From: Alphaproteobacteria bacterium | Lineage (GTDB): Bacteria > Pseudomonadota > Alphaproteobacteria > UBA8366 | Assembly: GCA_029861675.1 (NCBI GenBank) | Contig: JAOTYV010000122.1 | Span: 1 to 12,413 of the forward strand | DNA length: 12,413 nt | Direction: 5' to 3' | In this document: positions 1,901 through 12,413 of the stretch, one piece after another | How positions within the stretch are numbered: the first letter of the stretch is position 1 | How the letters are laid out: each line of letters begins with the position of its first letter | Position numbers and translations under genes: made by a program | The notes under the pieces: model-generated | Database searches by the model: none | What the model saw: the letters and a program-made list of their open reading frames with translations, nothing else | Told to the model about the DNA's origin: nothing

Positions 1901-1987
1901 GCGGTCGTGGCGGAATTGGTAGACGCGCAGCGTTGAGGTCGCTGTGGTGGAAACACCGTGGAAGTTCGAGTCTTCTCGACCGCACCA
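1901..1987 (+). tRNA. tRNA-Leu (anticodon GAG)
   Basis: An 87-base class II tRNA folds cleanly by eye. The acceptor arms are GCGGTCG (1901-1907) and CGACCGC (1977-1983), with discriminator A1984 and encoded CCA at 1985-1987. The D-arm region contains GGAATTGGTAGAC, typical of leucine tRNAs. The anticodon stem CAGCG/CGCTG (1928-1932 and 1940-1944) encloses the loop TTGAGGT with anticodon GAG at 1935-1937, reading CUC and CUU codons. A long variable arm, GGTG-GAAA-CACC (1946-1957), is present as expected for Leu. The T arm is GGAAG/CTTCT around TTCGAGT. No convincing -35/-10 pair is visible in the 124 bases upstream. Confidence 0.97.
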
Positions 1988-5919: not shown

Positions 5920-7092
5920 ATGATTCCCAACGAATTACCCGGCTTGGATTTTGGATTGGGCGAAACCGTCGACTTGCTGCGCGATACCGTGCGCGGTTTC
6001 GCTGCCGACAAGGTTGCGCCGCGGGCGGCCGAGATCGATGAAAGCAATGAATTTCCCCGTGACCTGTGGCCGGAGCTGGGCGCGCTTGGCCTGCTCGGCG
6101 TGACGGTGGAAGAAGAATATGGCGGCGCCGGCATGGGCTATACCGAGCATGTGGTCGCGACCGAGGAATTGAGCCGCGCCTCGGCGTCGGTCGGCCTGTC
6201 CTATGGCGCCCATTCCAACCTGTGCGTCAATCAAATCCGGCGCAACGGCACCGACGAACAGAAGCGACGGTACCTGCCCAAACTGATCAGCGGCGATCAC
6301 GTCGGCGCGCTGGCGATGAGCGAACCGCAGGCGGGCTCGGACGTGGTGTCGATGCGGACCCGGGCCGACAAAAAGGGCGACCGATACGTCCTCAACGGCA
6401 CCAAGATGTGGATCACCAACGGTCCCGACGCCGACGTTCTGGTGGTCTATGCCAAGACCGACCCGGATGCGGGATCGCGCGGCATGACCGCCTTCCTGAT
6501 CGAGAAATCCATGAAGGGATTCTCGACCGCGCAGAAGCTCGACAAGCTCGGTATGCGGGGATCGAACACCTGCGAGCTGGTCTTCGAGGATTGCGAGGTG
6601 CCCGCGGACAATGTGCTCGACCAGGAGGGGCGCGGCGTCAACGTGCTGATGAGTGGCCTCGATTATGAACGACTGGTGCTCGCGGGCGGGCCGCTCGGCA
6701 TCATGCAAGCCTGCATGGACGTGGTGATGCCGTATCTGCACGAGCGGACGCAATTCGGCCAGCCGATCGGCACCTTCCAGCTTATGCAAGGTAAGGCCGC
6801 CGACATGTACACGACGATGAACGCCGCCAAATCCTACGTCTATATGGTGGCGAAGGCCTGCGACCGCGGCGACGTCACCCGCAAGGATGCCGCCGGGGTT
6901 ATCCTGTATGCGGCGGAAAAGGCGACCTGGATGGCGCTGGAAGCGATCCAATGCCTCGGCGGCATGGGATATATCAACGAATCACCAACCGGCCGGCTGC
7001 TGCGCGACGCCAAGCTTTACGAGATCGGCGCCGGCACATCGGAAATCCGTCGCATGCTGATCGGCCGCGAATTGTTCGAGGAGACGATGTAA
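5920..7092 (+). CDS. liuA: Isovaleryl-CoA dehydrogenase
   Basis: An FAD-dependent acyl-CoA dehydrogenase of 390 residues that oxidises isovaleryl-CoA to 3-methylcrotonyl-CoA in leucine degradation, passing electrons to electron-transfer flavoprotein. The family signatures are present: [29 protein letters not shown], the flavin-side [18 protein letters not shown], and the C-terminal QCLGGMGY and GAGTSEIRR. The decisive feature is the catalytic base. Isovaleryl-CoA dehydrogenases carry it in the motif [14 protein letters not shown], where Glu250 (codon 6667-6669) stands here. Other acyl-CoA dehydrogenases place it about 120 residues later, in the segment before the C-terminal arginine motif, and here that segment has Gly (YEIGAGTSE) instead of Glu. 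The gene has its own ribosome site and an operator-like upstream region, and its stop overlaps the next start in TAATG. Confidence 0.95.
7078..7083 (+). promoter_or_regulatory. Ribosome binding site of the cupin gene
   Basis: GAGGAG inside the end of the dehydrogenase gene lies eight bases before the ATG at 7092. It fixes that start over the longer open frame reaching back to 6951. Confidence 0.55.
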
Positions 7093-7568
7093 TGGCACCT
7101 TCGAAGTACGACAAGATAGACCCGATGGCGGTCGAGCCGTCGTTTGGATCGAGTTATCCGCCGGAATTCGCGGGCGTTTGCGAGATGCGTGAAAAGCGGC
7201 GGCTCGGCGATGTGTTCGGCTTGACGAATTTCGGCGTCAATATTGTGCGCCTGGCGCCGGGCGCGGCGTCCGCGCAACGCCATTGGCACAGCGCGCAGGA
7301 TGAATTCGTGTATATCCTCGAGGGCGAGGCGACGCTGGTCACCGATGCAGGCGAAACGGTCATGGGGCCGGGCGCGATGATGGGCTTTCCCGCCAACGCG
7401 CCGGATGGCCACCAACTGGTCAATAACTCGGCGAAGGACATGCTCTATCTCGAAATCGGCGACCGCAGCGGCGGCGATGAAGTGGACTATCCCGACATCG
7501 ATCTCTTGTTGCGATTCGTCGATGGCAAACGCCGCTTCGTCCATAAGGATGGAACACCGTACGATTAG
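7092..7568 (+). CDS. Single-domain cupin protein
   Basis: A 158-residue cytoplasmic protein with one cupin barrel, about residues 48-135. Cupin motif 1 is visible as His64, His66 and Glu71 within RHWHSAQDEFVYILEGE. Motif 2 is seen at GPGAMMGFPANAPDGH, with His107 as the fourth likely metal ligand, so a metal site is probably intact. There is no DNA-binding or second catalytic domain. The substrate cannot be read from the sequence; cupins include isomerases, dioxygenases and binding proteins. The ATG shares its A with the TAA stop of the dehydrogenase gene, and a good ribosome site precedes it, so the two are translationally linked. This suggests a role in leucine or acyl-CoA metabolism, by context only. 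Confidence 0.85.
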   Translation: MAPSKYDKIDPMAVEPSFGSSYPPEFAGVCEMREKRRLGDVFGLTNFGVNIVRLAPGAASAQRHWHSAQDEFVYILEGEATLVTDAGETVMGPGAMMGFPANAPDGHQLVNNSAKDMLYLEIGDRSGGDEVDYPDIDLLLRFVDGKRRFVHKDGTPYD

Positions 7569-7571
7569 GGA
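7567..7571 (+). promoter_or_regulatory. Ribosome binding site of the DUF1272 gene
   Basis: AGGGA overlaps the cupin stop codon and sits seven bases before the ATG at 7579. It supports that start over the out-of-frame ATG at 7572. Confidence 0.5.
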
Positions 7572-7578
7572 ATGGCCA

Positions 7579-7761
7579 ATGGCGCTGGAAATGAAATCCG
7601 CCTGCATGAAATGCGACGCGGGGCTCGAGTGGGCGGGGGAGGCCTATATCTGCTCCTACGAATGCACCTTCTGTGCGCCGTGCACCGAGTCCATGGCGCA
7701 TGTTTGCCCGAATTGCGGCGGCGAATTGGTGCGGCGGCCCCATCGCGTGAAGAAAGACTGA
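7579..7761 (+). CDS. Small Cys-rich DUF1272 protein
   Basis: A 60-residue protein with eight cysteines, at 9, 12, 25, 29, 32, 35, 43 and 46. They lie in CxxC-type pairs (CMKC, CTFC and CPNC), which fits one or two zinc-ribbon-like metal sites. The overall pattern, including YICSYECTFCAPC and VCPNCGGELVRRP, matches the DUF1272 family, whose function is unknown. It has a basic tail (RRPHRVKKD). The start is set by AGGGA seven bases upstream; the longer frame reaching back to 7405 is inside the cupin gene. It begins 10 bases after the cupin stop and ends four bases before the RidA-family start, placing it firmly in the operon. A metal-binding or protein-interaction role is likely, but the partner is not known. 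Confidence 0.88.
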   Translation: MALEMKSACMKCDAGLEWAGEAYICSYECTFCAPCTESMAHVCPNCGGELVRRPHRVKKD

Positions 7762-7765
7762 CTCG

Positions 7766-8152
7766 ATGCGTCGGCAAATCTCGTCCGGCTCCCCATTGGA
7801 AGCCGAGTACGGCTACGCCAGGGCCCTGGTTGACGGCGACTGGGTCTTCGTCTCGGGCACGACCGGCTTCGATTACACGACGATGACAATCTCAACGGAT
7901 GTCGCCGAGCAGGCGGCGCAAGCCTTCCGCAATATATCCGACGCGCTGGCGCAGGCGGGCTGCGGCCTCGAAGATGTTGTCCGCGTGCGGTACATCCTGC
8001 CGGATCGCGATGACGTGACGGCGGTGCAACCGGTCTTGCGCAAATTCATGGCGCGGGTGTCACCCGCGGCGACTGCGATCGTCGCGGGCCTTGTCGATCC
8101 GCGCATGAAAATCGAAATCGAAGCCACCGCCCGCAAGCGGCATGCGGAATGA
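7766..8152 (+). CDS. RidA-family protein (YjgF/YER057c/UK114), probably not a RidA-type deaminase
   Basis: A 128-residue member of the RidA superfamily, the normal length. The N-terminal half has WVFVSGTTGFD, the middle GLEDVVRVRYILPDRDD, and the C-terminal strand VDPRMKIEIEATA. True RidA proteins deaminate reactive enamines and imines such as 2-aminoacrylate, using an arginine in the segment VARLPKD (Arg105 of E. coli RidA). Here the matching segment reads VAGLVDPRM, with Gly108 in that place, so the deaminase activity is doubtful. Arg113 is displaced by several residues and is not an obvious substitute. Other Rid subgroups with unknown functions also lack the arginine. The ATG at 7766 is four bases after the DUF1272 stop and has only a weak ribosome site, suggesting coupling. 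It is the last gene of the four-gene unit that starts with isovaleryl-CoA dehydrogenase. Confidence 0.88.
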   Translation: MRRQISSGSPLEAEYGYARALVDGDWVFVSGTTGFDYTTMTISTDVAEQAAQAFRNISDALAQAGCGLEDVVRVRYILPDRDDVTAVQPVLRKFMARVSPAATAIVAGLVDPRMKIEIEATARKRHAE

Positions 8153-8237
8153 CGCATTGTCCGCGGTCGCGACCGAAGGGAACGGCGTGCGATTCATGGC
8201 GGAGTATCATTGCCTTGGTAGCCAATTTGTGGAACTA

Positions 8238-8261
8238 GTACCCGCCATCATAATAGGATGA
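8238..8261 (+). repeat. Left terminal inverted repeat of the MITE
   Basis: The 24 bases match the reverse complement of 8477-8500 without mismatch. With the flanking CTA the perfect inverted match extends to 27 bases (8235-8261 against 8477-8503). Outside it is the TA duplicate at 8236-8237. Confidence 0.9.
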
Positions 8262-8476
8262 TGCGTCTGATCGCGTGGTGGGTCCGCCGGGTAGGAAGCG
8301 TCGCGCGGGCGATGCGGCGCATCGGCAAGCGGCGCTGACGCCCGCCGGCGGATGCGGCACGCGACCCTTCGGGCGGCCTTACGGCCCCTTCGGACAGCGT
8401 CGCGCGGCCCTCGTGATGCGCGGGCATCACGGCGGACCACGCTCCTAGCCGAAGAGGCCGAAGGCCGTCATACGTG

Positions 8477-8500
8477 TCATCCTATTATGATGGCGGGTAC
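8477..8500 (-). repeat. Right terminal inverted repeat of the MITE
   Basis: This is the perfect inverted partner of 8238-8261, ending in GGCGGGTAC, followed by the TA duplicate at 8501-8502. It contains TATTAT at 8483-8488, which resembles a -10 hexamer pointing toward the AsnB-like gene, but no matching -35 was found. Confidence 0.9.
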
Positions 8501-8563
8501 TAGCGCTGTGATACGGAGTGTCGCGCCCGGCGCGGCGCAATCCCAATTATTCAGGCGGGGCGG

Positions 8564-10501
8564 ATGGGCGGAATCGCCGGGTTGATCGACACGGACCGCC
8601 GCATGGACACCGGCTCGCTGCAGCGTCTTGCCGGCTCCATGGCGGCACAACTAAAGCATCGTGGGCCCGACGGTGCGGGCAGTTTTGGCGATTCCGAAGC
8701 CGGGGTGGCGATCGGCAACCGTCGCCTTGCAATTCAGGAATCGGTCGAAAACGCCAATCAGCCAATGGAATCGCCCAATGGCCGCTACGTCGTGGCAATG
8801 GACGGTGGTGTATTTAATTTCACGGCGTTGCGCGCCGACCTTGAAGCGGCAGGCGAACGGAATTGGCGGGACGGTTCGGACACCGAGGTGATGCTGCGGG
8901 CGATCACGCGGCTCGGTGTTATGGGCGCGTTGGATCGGTTTGACGGCAGCTTCGCCTTTGCCCTGTGGGACAAGCAGACCCGCCGTCTCTATCTGGTTCG
9001 CGATCGAATGGGGGAAAAGCCCCTCTATTATGGCTGGTGCGGCGGGCATTTCGTTTTCGCTTCGGAACTGAAGGCGCTAACGATGCACCCGGACTGGAAG
9101 GGCGAAATCGACCGGGAGTCGTTGGCGTCGTTCATGCGCTACCGCTACGTGCCGGCGCCGCGGTCGATCTATCGGGAGATATCGAAGCTGGCGCCGGGAC
9201 ATTGGCTGACTGTCGATGCCGCGACGCTGCGGTCGGATGGGATCGGGAAGCCGCAGCCTTATTGGAGCTTGCGCGGTGTCGCCGAACGCGGCGTGCGCCA
9301 TCCGTTCCAGGGCGATGATGGCGAAGCGGTAGCCGAACTGGACCGGTTGCTCACCGATTCGGTGCGCAACCGGATGCAAGCCCGTGTTCCGGTTGGCGCG
9401 CTCTTGTCGGGAGGTCCGAATTCGTCGTTGATCGTATCGCTCATGCAGCGGGTGGCGGAGGGGCCGGTTCGGACGTTCACCATCCATTCGGCCGAGGGTT
9501 CCGACCGTGAAGGGGCGAGGGCGGATCACGTTGCGAAAATGCTCGGCGTCGACCATACGGATCTGCATGTGGATGCGGAAAGTACCCTTGAACTCGTCGG
9601 CCAGATGCCGCGTGTCTATGATGAGCCGACCGCCGATACGCGCCAATTGTCGGCGTTCTTGTTTGCGCAGATGACCCGGGAGCACGTCGGGGCCGCGTTG
9701 ACCGGCGGCGGCGGCGACCCGTTGTTTTGCGGCCATCCGCGCTACGCGGTCGGTGCGCGCCTTTGGGCACAGTTGGCCCGCCGTCCGGCGTGGCGCCGCG
9801 CGCTTGCCACGACCTTGTCACGGCAACTGCCGCTGCGCGTTTTCAATCGAATTTCGAATCTGCCGCAGTTACCGCTTCGGCTGGGCGACCGCCTGTACCG
9901 CGCGCTCATGGAATTGGCGAGCGGCGCGCCCGAACAGATATTCGAACGGATGACCAGCCTATGGCGAACGGTGGATGCGCCGATGCCGCGGCCGGTCACC
10001 GGGTATTTTCTGACCCCCGGCGCGTGGCCGGATCTCGACGGGCCGATGGCGCGGTTCAGCTATGCCGATTCGGTCACCGATCTGCCCAACGGATTCCTTG
10101 CGGGCGTCGATCGTGCAGCCATGGCCGTGGGATTGGAAGTGCGCGCACCCTTGCTGAGCCGGCCGCTTGCCGAGTTCGCCTGGCGCCTGCCGAACGACTT
10201 CAAATACCGCGAAGGCCGGCCGAAATGGATCCTGGGGACGCTGCTGGCACGCTATTGTCCCGACCTGACGATTGCCAAGACCCAACCGGGGTTCGTGCCG
10301 CCGATTGCCGCGTGGCTGCGGGGCCCGCTGCACGATTGGGCCGGTGACCTCTTGTCGCCGGATACTCTCAAAGCCGACGGGTTGATCGATCCGGCGCCAA
10401 TACTGGCCGTCTGGAACGAGCATCGCCGAGGCACTCATGATTGGAGCGGCGAACTTTGGAATGTCTTGATGTACCTGTCGTGGCGGGCCGAATGGCGCTA
10501 G
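8564..10501 (+). CDS. Asparagine synthetase-like (AsnB family) protein with both active sites degenerate
   Basis: A full-length, 645-residue protein with the two-domain AsnB layout: a class II glutamine amidotransferase domain (about 1-210) and an ATP-pyrophosphatase synthetase domain (about 250-640). The fold markers are clear (KHRGPDGAG, GSDTEVML, MGEKPLYYG, YDEPTAD, LEVRAPLL, AAWLRGPLHDWA). Catalytic residues are not. The N-terminal nucleophile Cys2 is Gly (MGGIAGL). The glutamine-pocket NGEIYN is DGGVFN at 80-85. The pyrophosphate loop SGGxDSS is SGGPNSS at 282-288, so Asp is Asn286. The SGxGxDELF motif is TGGGGDPLF at 380-388, losing two acidic residues while keeping Asp385. The typical PFLD is PLLS. 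The gene is otherwise intact, so it may be a pseudoenzyme or have a changed activity; ordinary asparagine synthesis is unlikely. It overlaps the metallophosphoesterase gene by 10 bases. The ribosome site is weak (GGCGGGGCGG next to the ATG). Confidence 0.9.
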   Translation: MGGIAGLIDTDRRMDTGSLQRLAGSMAAQLKHRGPDGAGSFGDSEAGVAIGNRRLAIQESVENANQPMESPNGRYVVAMDGGVFNFTALRADLEAAGERNWRDGSDTEVMLRAITRLGVMGALDRFDGSFAFALWDKQTRRLYLVRDRMGEKPLYYGWCGGHFVFASELKALTMHPDWKGEIDRESLASFMRYRYVPAPRSIYREISKLAPGHWLTVDAATLRSDGIGKPQPYWSLRGVAERGVRHPFQGDDGEAVAELDRLLTDSVRNRMQARVPVGALLSGGPNSSLIVSLMQRVAEGPVRTFTIHSAEGSDREGARADHVAKMLGVDHTDLHVDAESTLELVGQMPRVYDEPTADTRQLSAFLFAQMTREHVGAALTGGGGDPLFCGHPRYAVGARLWAQLARRPAWRRALATTLSRQLPLRVFNRISNLPQLPLRLGDRLYRALMELASGAPEQIFERMTSLWRTVDAPMPRPVTGYFLTPGAWPDLDGPMARFSYADSVTDLPNGFLAGVDRAAMAVGLEVRAPLLSRPLAEFAWRLPNDFKYREGRPKWILGTLLARYCPDLTIAKTQPGFVPPIAAWLRGPLHDWAGDLLSPDTLKADGLIDPAPILAVWNEHRRGTHDWSGELWNVLMYLSWRAEWR

Positions 10502-11367
10502 CCGGAGCAACCAGGCGTTTCGTGTTGTGGTTCACGCTTGGCGGATTGCTGGTCGGCACGGCGCTTACGGTTTGGGGTTTCATAATTGAACCGAACCGTT
10601 TGGTTACGACCGAGTTGGTCCACCGATCGCCGAAATGGCCGGCGGCTTTGCCGCCCCTCCGGATTGTGTCCGTCAGCGACATCCATACGGGATCGCCCCA
10701 TCTCGACGTGAACAAATTGTCCAGCGTGGTGCGGCGGATCAATGCCCTCCAGCCGGACATCGTGCTGTTGCTCGGCGACTACGTGATCCATGGCGTTTTG
10801 TTCGGCCGGTTCGTCACGCCGGAAGCGACGGCGAAGATACTCGGCGGTATTCGGGCCAAATACGGGGTTTTCGCGGTTCTCGGCAATCATGATTGGTGGC
10901 TCGACGGTCCGCGAATTCAATCGACCTTGCGAACCAACGGCATCGCGGTGCTGGAGAACCGGGCCCATCGAATCGAAGCGGCTGAAGGGCCGTTCTGGAT
11001 CGCCGGAATATCCGATGACACCACGCGGCACCCCGATCCCGTTGGGGCGCTGCGGCACATTCCGGCGGGAGAACCGGTCATCGTTTTTAGCCACGATCCC
11101 GCGATCTTCCCGGATGTTCCCGGACGGGCGGCGATAACCGTGGCTGGGCATACGCATGGGGGTCAGATATATCTTCCTTGGATCGGCGCCCTTATCGTGC
11201 CCGGCCGGGCGCCCCGGCGACACGCCCATGGGCTGATCGAGGAAAACGGCAAGGCGATGATTGTCACCAGTGGGCTCGGAACCAGCATAATTCCCGTTCG
11301 GATTAACATGCCGCCCGAGATTGCTTCGATTACACTCATGAGCGAACACGCCCAAATCGACCGGTAA
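10492..11367 (+). CDS. Membrane-anchored metallophosphoesterase (YkuE-like)
   Basis: A 291-residue calcineurin-like phosphoesterase with one N-terminal hydrophobic segment at about residues 10-32, which probably anchors it in the inner membrane with the catalytic domain outside. All metal-site motifs are present: SDIHTG (Asp63, His65), GDY (Asp96), GNHD (Asn132, His133), SHDP (His201) and GHTHGGQ (His220, His222). The order and spacing fit the YkuE/YaeI-type group, whose studied members act on phosphate esters including lipid A-type or other phospholipid substrates; the substrate here is unknown. The ATG at 10492 lies inside the end of the AsnB-like gene, giving a 10-base overlap and likely coupled translation. 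The frame is open back to 10441, but those 17 residues add nothing recognisable before the membrane segment. The next gene starts 27 bases after the stop. Confidence 0.9.
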   Translation: MALAGATRRFVLWFTLGGLLVGTALTVWGFIIEPNRLVTTELVHRSPKWPAALPPLRIVSVSDIHTGSPHLDVNKLSSVVRRINALQPDIVLLLGDYVIHGVLFGRFVTPEATAKILGGIRAKYGVFAVLGNHDWWLDGPRIQSTLRTNGIAVLENRAHRIEAAEGPFWIAGISDDTTRHPDPVGALRHIPAGEPVIVFSHDPAIFPDVPGRAAITVAGHTHGGQIYLPWIGALIVPGRAPRRHAHGLIEENGKAMIVTSGLGTSIIPVRINMPPEIASITLMSEHAQIDR

Positions 11368-11394: not shown

Positions 11395-12413
11395 ATGCCC
11401 GTACTCAAGACAATCGCCGATCCACGCTCCGATACGTTCCGTGCCAACGCGGACGCGATGCGGACGGTGGTGGGTGAATTGCGCGCCGCCTTTTCGGAGA
11501 TCGAGAAGGGCGGTGGTGACGCGGCGCGCGAGCGGCATTTGTCGCGCGGCAAGTTGCTGCCGCGGGATCGCATCGAACAATTGCTCGATCCCGGCGCGCC
11601 GTTTCTCGAATTCTCGCCGCTCGCGGCCCATGGCATGTATGGCGACACCATCGCGGCGTCGGGACTAATCACCGGGATCGGCGCGGTGTCGGGTGTCGAG
11701 TGCGTCATTGTCGTGAACGACGCGACGGTCAAGGGCGGAACCTATTTCCCGATAACCGTCAAGAAACACCTGCGCGCCCAGGAGATCGCACAGGAAAACA
11801 ACCTGCCCTGCATCTATCTGGTCGATTCCGGCGGCGCCAATCTGCCGAACCAGGACGAGGTGTTCCCCGACCGCACGCATTTCGGGCGGATTTTCTACAA
11901 CCAGGCCAACATGTCGGCGCAGGGCATTCCGCAAATTGCGGTCGTCATGGGGTCTTGCACCGCCGGCGGCGCGTATGTCCCGGCAATGTCGGACGAGGCG
12001 GTGATCGTGCGCGAACAAGGCACGATCTTTCTTGGCGGTCCGGCCCTGGTGAAGGCGGCCACCGGAGAAGTCGCGACGCCGGAGGAGTTGGGCGGTGCCG
12101 ACATTCATTCCCGCGTCTCCGGCGTCACCGACCACTATGCGACCGATGACGCGCATGCGCTGGCCATCTGCCGGCGGATCGTCGCAAATCTCAACCGACG
12201 GAAGCAGATCACGCTCGATGTGGTGGACCCGAAACCGCCGCTTTACGCCAGCGAGGAAATTTACGGCGTCGTGCCGGACGATGTACGGAAGCCGTACGAT
12301 GTCCGTGAGGTTATCGCCCGCATGGTCGACGGCAGCGAGTTCGACGAATTCAAGGCGCTGTACGGCACCACGCTGGTTTGCGGCTTCGCACGGCTGCACG
12401 GTTATCCGGTGGG
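11395..12413 (+). CDS. liuB: 3-Methylcrotonyl-CoA carboxylase beta (carboxyltransferase) subunit, 3' end outside window
   Basis: This is the non-biotin, carboxyltransferase subunit of methylcrotonyl-CoA carboxylase. It moves the carboxyl group from biotin to 3-methylcrotonyl-CoA, the step directly after isovaleryl-CoA dehydrogenase in leucine degradation. The frame stays open from the ATG at 11395 to the window edge, giving 339 residues of an expected ~535. Diagnostic segments are [65 protein letters not shown] and [15 protein letters not shown]. The [19 protein letters not shown] wording separates it from the propionyl-CoA carboxylase beta subunit. No good Shine-Dalgarno precedes the ATG, which is 27 bases after the metallophosphoesterase stop, so it may be read from the upstream transcript. 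The biotin-carrying partner would be expected just beyond the right edge; the biotin subunit at the left edge is the propionyl-CoA type. Confidence 0.93.

What the first reader, a model, noticed from the sequence alone, without database searches (positions are those of the whole stretch)
8564..10501. AsnB-family protein with signature residues lost in both catalytic sites
The reading frame is intact over 645 residues, yet the glutaminase nucleophile Cys2 is Gly, the glutamine-pocket NGE is DGG (80-82), the pyrophosphate-loop Asp is Asn286, and SGxGxDELF is TGGGGDPLF (380-388). Several changes hit exactly the residues that define the two reactions, while structural motifs around them are kept. 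A decaying gene would normally also show stops or frameshifts. The simplest reading is a conserved pseudoenzyme or a family that has switched to another reaction, for example a scaffold or adenylating protein acting with the overlapping phosphoesterase. The GGC codon at position 2 is one base from a Cys codon, so that single change alone could be error; the others cannot all be.
Basis: partly seen in the sequence, partly recalled or inferred. Interest (0 to 1): 0.75.

Follow-up and report, generated by a model that had tools for sequence, protein, structure and literature searches.

The report
Conserved dead asparagine-synthetase-like protein with phosphoesterase
A bacterial protein that keeps the whole shape of an ammonia-transferring enzyme has lost the key residues of both its reaction centres, and related lineages have lost the same residues on their own, which suggests it now works as a non-catalytic partner, perhaps of the phosphoesterase encoded right behind it.

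The parts
8564..10501 (+). AsnB-like pseudoenzyme gene, 645 aa (P0001)
8567..8569 (+). codon 2: Gly in place of the glutaminase nucleophile Cys
   Evidence: Gly also in P0002
8801..8809 (+). codons 80-82 DGG in place of NGE (Asn74, Gly75, Glu76 of E. coli AsnB)
9407..9427 (+). codons 282-288 SGGPNSS: pyrophosphate loop with Asp286 replaced by Asn (Asp238 of E. coli AsnB)
9701..9727 (+). codons 380-388 TGGGGDPLF in place of SGDGGDELF (E. coli Glu348 -> Gly, Glu352 -> Pro)
9764..10063 (+). codons 401-500, helical segment variable in active-like homologues but with only 3 differences in the window pair (13.6 expected)
   Evidence: not specially conserved in the second degenerate group
10103..10105 (+). 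codon 514 Gly in place of a Lys kept in 196 of 210 homologues
10283..10285 (+). codon 574 Gln in place of Lys449 of E. coli AsnB
10492..10501 (+). 10-base overlap: probable start codon of the phosphoesterase inside the last codons of the AsnB-like gene
   Evidence: sequence read directly; similar arrangement inferred from protein ends in relatives
10492..11367 (+). calcineurin-like metallophosphoesterase (291 aa) with an N-terminal hydrophobic segment (by eye), catalytic motifs intact
   Evidence: Pfam Metallophos 39.5 bits, for the reading frame from 10441; DIH, GDY, GNHD, SHD, GHTH motifs

Best explanation
The gene encodes a retained, folded pseudoenzyme of the AsnB type. Shown here by sequence: both active sites have lost catalytic side chains, the same losses are present in a 90%-identical relative, and a related group lost the same sites, apparently independently. 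Inferred: after losing first the glutaminase nucleophile and then the ATP-site residues, the protein kept a structural job. It is made in step with the phosphoesterase whose start codon lies inside its own last codons, and it most likely acts as that enzyme's non-catalytic cytoplasmic partner, stabilising, tethering or regulating it. The working surface would be elsewhere than the old ATP pocket: the glutaminase-type domain and, in the window lineage, the outer helical segment 401-500.
Against: Constraint is relaxed: relative rate at the most conserved quartile is 0.37 in the window pair, 0.59-0.72 in four second-group pairs and 0.74 in P0010/P0011, against 0.04-0.16 in ten comparison pairs; in two of the four second-group pairs the rank correlation of differences with variability is not significant (p 0.1, 0.07). 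Overlap of the lost sites is what any loss of catalysis with a kept fold predicts, so it does not by itself show a shared new job. Segment 401-500 is not specially conserved in the second group. No DNA of a clade relative could be obtained, so dN/dS is untested. The phosphoesterase linked to P0017 starts MRR, and within the second-group phosphoesterase cluster P0240 and P0227 do not start MAV or MAL (P0227 has MAV further in). Close phosphoesterase relatives on contigs of 127 and 117 kb were not matched to a clade AsnB. High mirror-tree r is expected from shared species history. No interaction was modelled or measured.
Confidence: 0.45

Rival explanations
1. Slow decay: the enzyme became dispensable and the gene is drifting, held open for now by its overlap with a needed downstream phosphoesterase whose translation it couples.
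For: Long branch to the pair (0.77) and relaxed constraint at formerly invariant sites, stronger still in the second group. The overlap at 10492-10501 would by itself penalise frameshifts and stops. The protein search favours full-length candidates, so broken copies would be under-counted.
Against: Differences between P0001 and P0002 remain depleted at conserved sites, p = 0.0002. Segment 401-500 is more conserved than expected in that pair, p = 0.0004, uncorrected for five segments. The second group spans 71-91% identity to P0117 in ten full-length rows, with entropy still correlated to that of active-like rows, rho 0.29. Both models fold with high confidence.
Confidence: 0.22
2. Prozyme-type partner: the pseudoenzyme forms a mixed dimer with an active AsnB-family paralogue elsewhere in the genome and regulates it.
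For: Human ASNS is a head-to-head dimer (PMC11296641 passage); enzyme-prozyme pairs appear in the reference list of the pseudoenzyme review PMC10211241.
Against: No whole genome is held for the window, so a paralogue could not be looked for. The gene is physically tied to a phosphoesterase, not to another AsnB.
Confidence: 0.13
3. New reaction in the old fold, with relocated catalytic residues.
For: Equivalents of Arg49, Gly75 and Asp98 of the Gln pocket and of Ser234 are kept in all 210 rows. Residue 80 changed Asn to Asp in three places on the tree, and residues 80 and 509 carry the same derived residue in all 12 fully degenerate rows.
Against: Nucleophile, loop Asp, two acidic motif positions and Lys all replaced; in the second group the replacements at some of these vary among rows, and the stretches 302-344 and 345-387 near the ATP site are among its more variable parts.
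Confidence: 0.12
4. Sequencing or assembly error.
For: Codon 2 GGC is one base from a Cys codon (sequence).
Against: P0002 on another contig, 10% different in sequence, has the same changes; at least seven catalytic positions are involved.
Confidence: 0.01

Closest known systems
Glutamine-dependent asparagine synthetase B (AsnB; E. coli 1ct9, human ASNS)
   Different: Cys1, Asn74, Glu76, Asp238, Glu348, Glu352, Lys449 all replaced
XrtA/PEP-CTERM system amidotransferase (TIGR03108) and its relatives
   Same: Best NCBIfam score, 410.5 bits over the full length
   Different: Far below the curated cut-off of 816.9 bits; no polysaccharide genes recognised in the window by eye
Hydroxyamidotransferase TsnB9 (7ylz)
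   Different: 26% identity; P0001 lacks the loop Asp and the two motif Glu that the 7ylz sequence keeps in the alignment
Beta-lactam synthetase and carbapenam synthetase
   Different: They keep an ATP-using synthetase site (1mb9 is titled an ATP complex; activity recalled); the window protein has lost those residues too
YaeI / LpxG-type metallophosphoesterases (for the overlapping gene)
   Same: Calcineurin-like fold and motifs; 97.8 and 116.5 bits
   Different: Below both curated cut-offs (188 and 350 bits); substrate unknown

Membership tests
Asparagine synthase, glutamine-hydrolysing (TIGR01536) | score over the curated cut-off | tested here: met
   351.5 bits against 267.1
Asparagine synthase, glutamine-hydrolysing (TIGR01536) | N-terminal Cys nucleophile and NGE glutamine pocket | tested here: not met
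   Gly2, DGG
Asparagine synthase, glutamine-hydrolysing (TIGR01536) | pyrophosphate-loop Asp, acidic SGxGxDE motif and catalytic Lys of the synthetase site | tested here: not met
   Asn286, Gly382, Pro386, Gln574
AsnB-type fold superfamily | Ntn glutaminase fold plus PP-loop synthetase domain | tested here: met
XrtA/PEP-CTERM amidotransferase (TIGR03108) | score over the curated cut-off | tested here: not met
   410.5 against 816.9 bits
Beta-lactam/carbapenam synthetase-like | glutaminase lost while the ATP site is kept (recalled) | tested here: not met
   ATP-site residues lost as well
Pseudoenzyme (protein lacking conserved catalytic motifs) | catalytic motifs lost, fold and gene retained in more than one organism | tested here: met
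   definition from the start of the abstract of PMC10211241
Pseudoenzyme (protein lacking conserved catalytic motifs) | absence of activity in an assay | not testable with these tools
   needs purified protein
LpxG or YaeI (overlapping phosphoesterase) | score over the curated cut-off | tested here: not met
   116.5 against 350 and 97.8 against 188 bits

The most novel reading that the evidence does not exclude
In one bacterial clade an AsnB-type amidotransferase has repeatedly been turned, by loss of the same catalytic residues, into a ligand-sensing regulatory subunit of a membrane-bound phosphoesterase: the retained Arg49/Gly75/Asp98 part of the glutamine pocket would still bind glutamine or another amino compound and signal to the coupled phosphoesterase, while the dead ATP domain serves as scaffold.
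Probability: 0.15. Interest if true: 0.8.

Novelty: new variant of a known kind. Interest (0 to 1): 0.6.

Why it matters
Here is a large two-site metabolic enzyme that lost both sites while keeping its fold, apparently several times within one sampled clade, with intact, half-lost (Cys only) and fully lost members side by side. That graded series makes the order of loss, and what is still selected afterwards, directly testable. If the coupling to the phosphoesterase is functional, it would give an AsnB-type protein a regulatory role that the searches run here did not find described.

Tried and rejected
Whole-genome context of relatives: no genome is held for the window; the single genome-contig scan gave only a Bacteroidales locus at 31% identity; two scans of viral contigs gave no relative; 61 genomes (the Bacteroidales one and its relatives) gave no match at 1e-100. 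So neighbourhoods were inferred only from the contig lengths listed with the proteins.

All protein lists are capped: the best 120 of up to 8000 scored candidates, so counts of relatives are lower bounds and 'not matched' means not matched within those lists.

Two further contig-length coincidences (P0256/P0171, different sources; P0323/P0073, 3,018 bp, both jgi) involve rows outside the clade and were set aside as likely chance. Two rows without a listed contig length (P0080, P0275) and P0001 itself were left out of that comparison.

Plasmids: best AsnB-family hits 44.1% (P0001) and 48.9% (P0004); best phosphoesterase hit 38.8%. I had first taken these to lie outside the clade by identity alone; the 48.9% hit (Burkholderia multivorans) was then read by eye: 655 aa, catalytic motifs intact, C-terminus not of the EWx type, no phosphoesterase recognised in the 4 kb on either side; it was not placed on a tree because that script failed. 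The Isosphaeraceae hit sits among glycosyltransferase genes. In the two Burkholderia records shown in both lists (NZ_CP101525.1, NZ_CP091013.1) the two genes lie over 100 kb apart.

Literature: searches pairing 'pseudoenzyme' with asparagine synthetase or synthase and 'catalytically inactive' with asparagine synthetase and glutaminase domain held no paper; 'pseudoenzyme' with amidotransferase gave ten listed papers, none on AsnB by title or abstract start. 'Asparagine synthase', 'metallophosphoesterase' and 'operon' gave one paper on Bacteroidetes iron deficiency, seen as a listing only. In the pseudoenzyme review PMC10211241 a term search found no mention of asparagine, glutamin- or amidotransferase; the rest of it was not read. 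Of PMC6748925 passages were seen. Searches were seen as listings. The library is open-access PMC only, so absence there is weak. Human ASNSD1 was considered as a possible parallel; PMC9140057 calls it a potential enzyme predicted by similarity (passages), so it was not used.

Structure: the models could be searched but I had no coordinates in scripts, so pockets were judged from alignment with published contact residues, not by geometry. The alignment of E. coli Asp384 to residue 505 looks a few positions off and was not used as a loss.

Full report
What is there. The ORF at 8564-10501 (+) is open for 645 codons and matches Pfam Asn_synthase (263 bits) and GATase_7 (123.4 bits). Residue 514, Lys in 196 of 210 aligned proteins, is Gly. 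Kept are Arg49, Gly75, Asp98, Ser234 and Asp351. That Arg49, Asn74, Gly75, Glu76 and Asp98 contact glutamine, and Ser234, Asp238, Ser346, Val272 and Glu352 contact AMP, was read in passages of PMC11296641; the roles of Glu348 and Lys449 are recalled.

It is not an error. The best 120 hits list one close relative, P0002, 90% identical, on a 3,548-bp contig from jgi (the window's own source is not told). It has the same residue at each of the positions named above, except 514 (Ser instead of Gly). The next listed relatives are near 53% identity; P0003 to P0009 are intact.

Two groups, same losses. A search with P0117 added more members of a second degenerate group: ten proteins, 71-91% identical to P0117, with Ser2, DGA, SG[ST]VA, an altered SGDGGDE motif and neither lysine. 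Three other clade rows are part-way: P0011 (Ser2 only among the catalytic set), P0010 (Ser2, Lys574 lost) and P0012 (Ser2, Asp80, Ala382, Ala386, Gln514, Glu574); P0017 is partly degenerate and sister to the second group. P0018, outside the clade, has Gly2 with the other catalytic residues intact.

In a tree of 74 chosen rows out of 210, the window pair, the second group, P0017, P0010-P0012 and ten active-like rows form a clade of 26 with SH-aLRT 99. The fewest changes needed at Cys2 are five, at Lys574 four, at Asp286 two (read as losses, which parsimony does not prove). With 36 trait positions taken out, the window pair and the second group stay apart, separated by the intact P0003, and holding window, second group and P0017 as one clade costs 37 log units, p-AU 0.037 (quick trees, and the groups were named after seeing the first tree). 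Among 120 positions near-invariant in 192 active-like rows, the window pair changed 20 and the second group 23, with 12 in common (hypergeometric p 7e-6): 2, 80, 82, 286, 360, 363, 364, 382, 386, 391, 514, 574. Six active-like rows used as controls showed 3, 0, 0, 0, 0 and 0 changes, but they belong to the 192 rows that defined the positions. Ligand-contact positions are enriched among the changes in both groups. Such overlap is what loss of catalysis with a kept fold predicts; it argues for that, not for a particular new job.

Is it still selected? P0001 and P0002 differ at 65 positions: 6, 16, 20 and 23 from the most to the least conserved quartile, p = 0.0002. About 2.9 nonsense changes would be expected alongside 65 missense changes without selection, not a strong test by itself. 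The positional constraint is weaker than in active-like pairs: rate in the most conserved quartile relative to overall 0.37, against 0.04-0.16 in ten comparison pairs (nine active-like, and P0018/P0023, which includes the Cys-less P0018). Four second-group pairs give 0.59-0.72 and the partly degenerate pair P0010/P0011 0.74; in two of those four, and in P0010/P0011, the rank correlation of differences with variability is not significant (p 0.1, 0.07, 0.07). Over all ten second-group rows the site entropy does follow that of active-like rows, rho 0.29. Segment 401-500, normally variable, has 3 differences in the window pair where 13.6 were expected, p = 0.0004 before correction for five segments; the second group does not show this, and one active-like pair, P0029/P0033, is also slow there. 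In the second group the stretches 302-344 and 345-387 are among the more variable, while 130-172, 173-215 and 603-645 are the quietest. So the protein seems retained but under different demands. The gene's GC by codon position (0.67, 0.50, 0.74) resembles its neighbours.

Neighbourhood. The next gene, a metallophosphoesterase with an N-terminal hydrophobic segment (by eye), most likely starts at the ATG at 10492, inside the last codons of the AsnB-like gene (GAA TGG CGC TAG). Its catalytic motifs are intact, as they are in the other 18 full-length proteins aligned with it (P0214 is a fragment). A homologue search (best 120 listed) gives phosphoesterases on contigs whose lengths equal those of six Cys2-less clade rows, with the same sources: P0230/P0123 (4,961 bp), P0255/P0125 (4,086), P0243/P0017 (11,333), P0235/P0113 (51,197), P0231/P0124 (3,554,369), P0239/P0117 (4,975,855) (208 against 119 rows). 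That is 6 of 15 such rows besides the window; none of the ten active-like clade rows was matched. On the two shortest contigs the two genes must be close together. In the phosphoesterase tree the partner of P0017 is sister to the cluster that holds the partners of the second group, as in the AsnB tree. All ten second-group AsnB-like proteins end EWL and the five linked phosphoesterases start MAV or MAL, as expected if a GAATGG overlap is used; all 15 phosphoesterases among the 120 that start so belong to the window group, the second-group cluster or P0215. In that 13-row cluster P0240 (MAR) and P0227 (longer, MAV further in) do not start so. This is an inference from protein ends. The P0017 partner starts MRR and does not fit, and 9 of 10 active-like clade rows also end EWx, so the overlap may be older than the losses.

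Interpretation. A retained pseudoenzyme is well supported (about 0.8). That its job concerns the coupled phosphoesterase is the best available reading (about 0.45 for the whole statement): two lineages that seem to have lost activity separately keep the same partner gene, and the overlap would tie their synthesis together. Slow decay, shielded from stops by the overlap, is the main rival. An adenylating role is unlikely because the ATP-site residues are gone. A glutamine-sensing role is not excluded, because the Arg49, Gly75 and Asp98 equivalents are kept in all 210 rows.

Against the known. By score it passes TIGR01536 but fails the catalytic features that define it; it is far below TIGR03108. 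Beta-lactam-type relatives lose the glutaminase but keep the ATP site (recalled). No description of an AsnB pseudoenzyme of this kind was found in the searches listed, which cover open-access papers only.

Noticed in passing
window 8235-8503: 36-nt inverted repeat arms, 92% complementary, 197 nt apart, in the gap between the RidA gene and the AsnB-like gene; looks like a small mobile element or its remnant.
   Followed up: no
window 5920-8152 and 11395-12413: The AsnB-like/phosphoesterase pair sits between an acyl-CoA dehydrogenase (isovaleryl-type, by eye), a cupin and a RidA protein (both Pfam) and the start of an acyl-CoA carboxylase beta subunit (by eye from the translation), like an insertion in a leucine-degradation-type cluster.
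   Followed up: partly
P0018 (Aestuariispira ectoiniformans): An AsnB-family protein outside the clade with Gly2 and otherwise intact catalytic residues: an apparently glutaminase-dead, synthetase-intact form.
   Followed up: no
P0010, P0011, P0012: Part-way members (Ser2 with the synthetase site intact or partly lost) beside intact sisters, giving a graded series of loss.
   Followed up: partly
window residues 80 and 509 of the AsnB-like protein: All 12 fully degenerate rows carry the same derived residues Asp80 and Asn509 although the two groups are separate on the tree; parallel change to the same residue is not what random decay would favour.
   Followed up: no
window 1901-1984 (+): tRNA gene found by Rfam (51.7 bits).
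   Followed up: no
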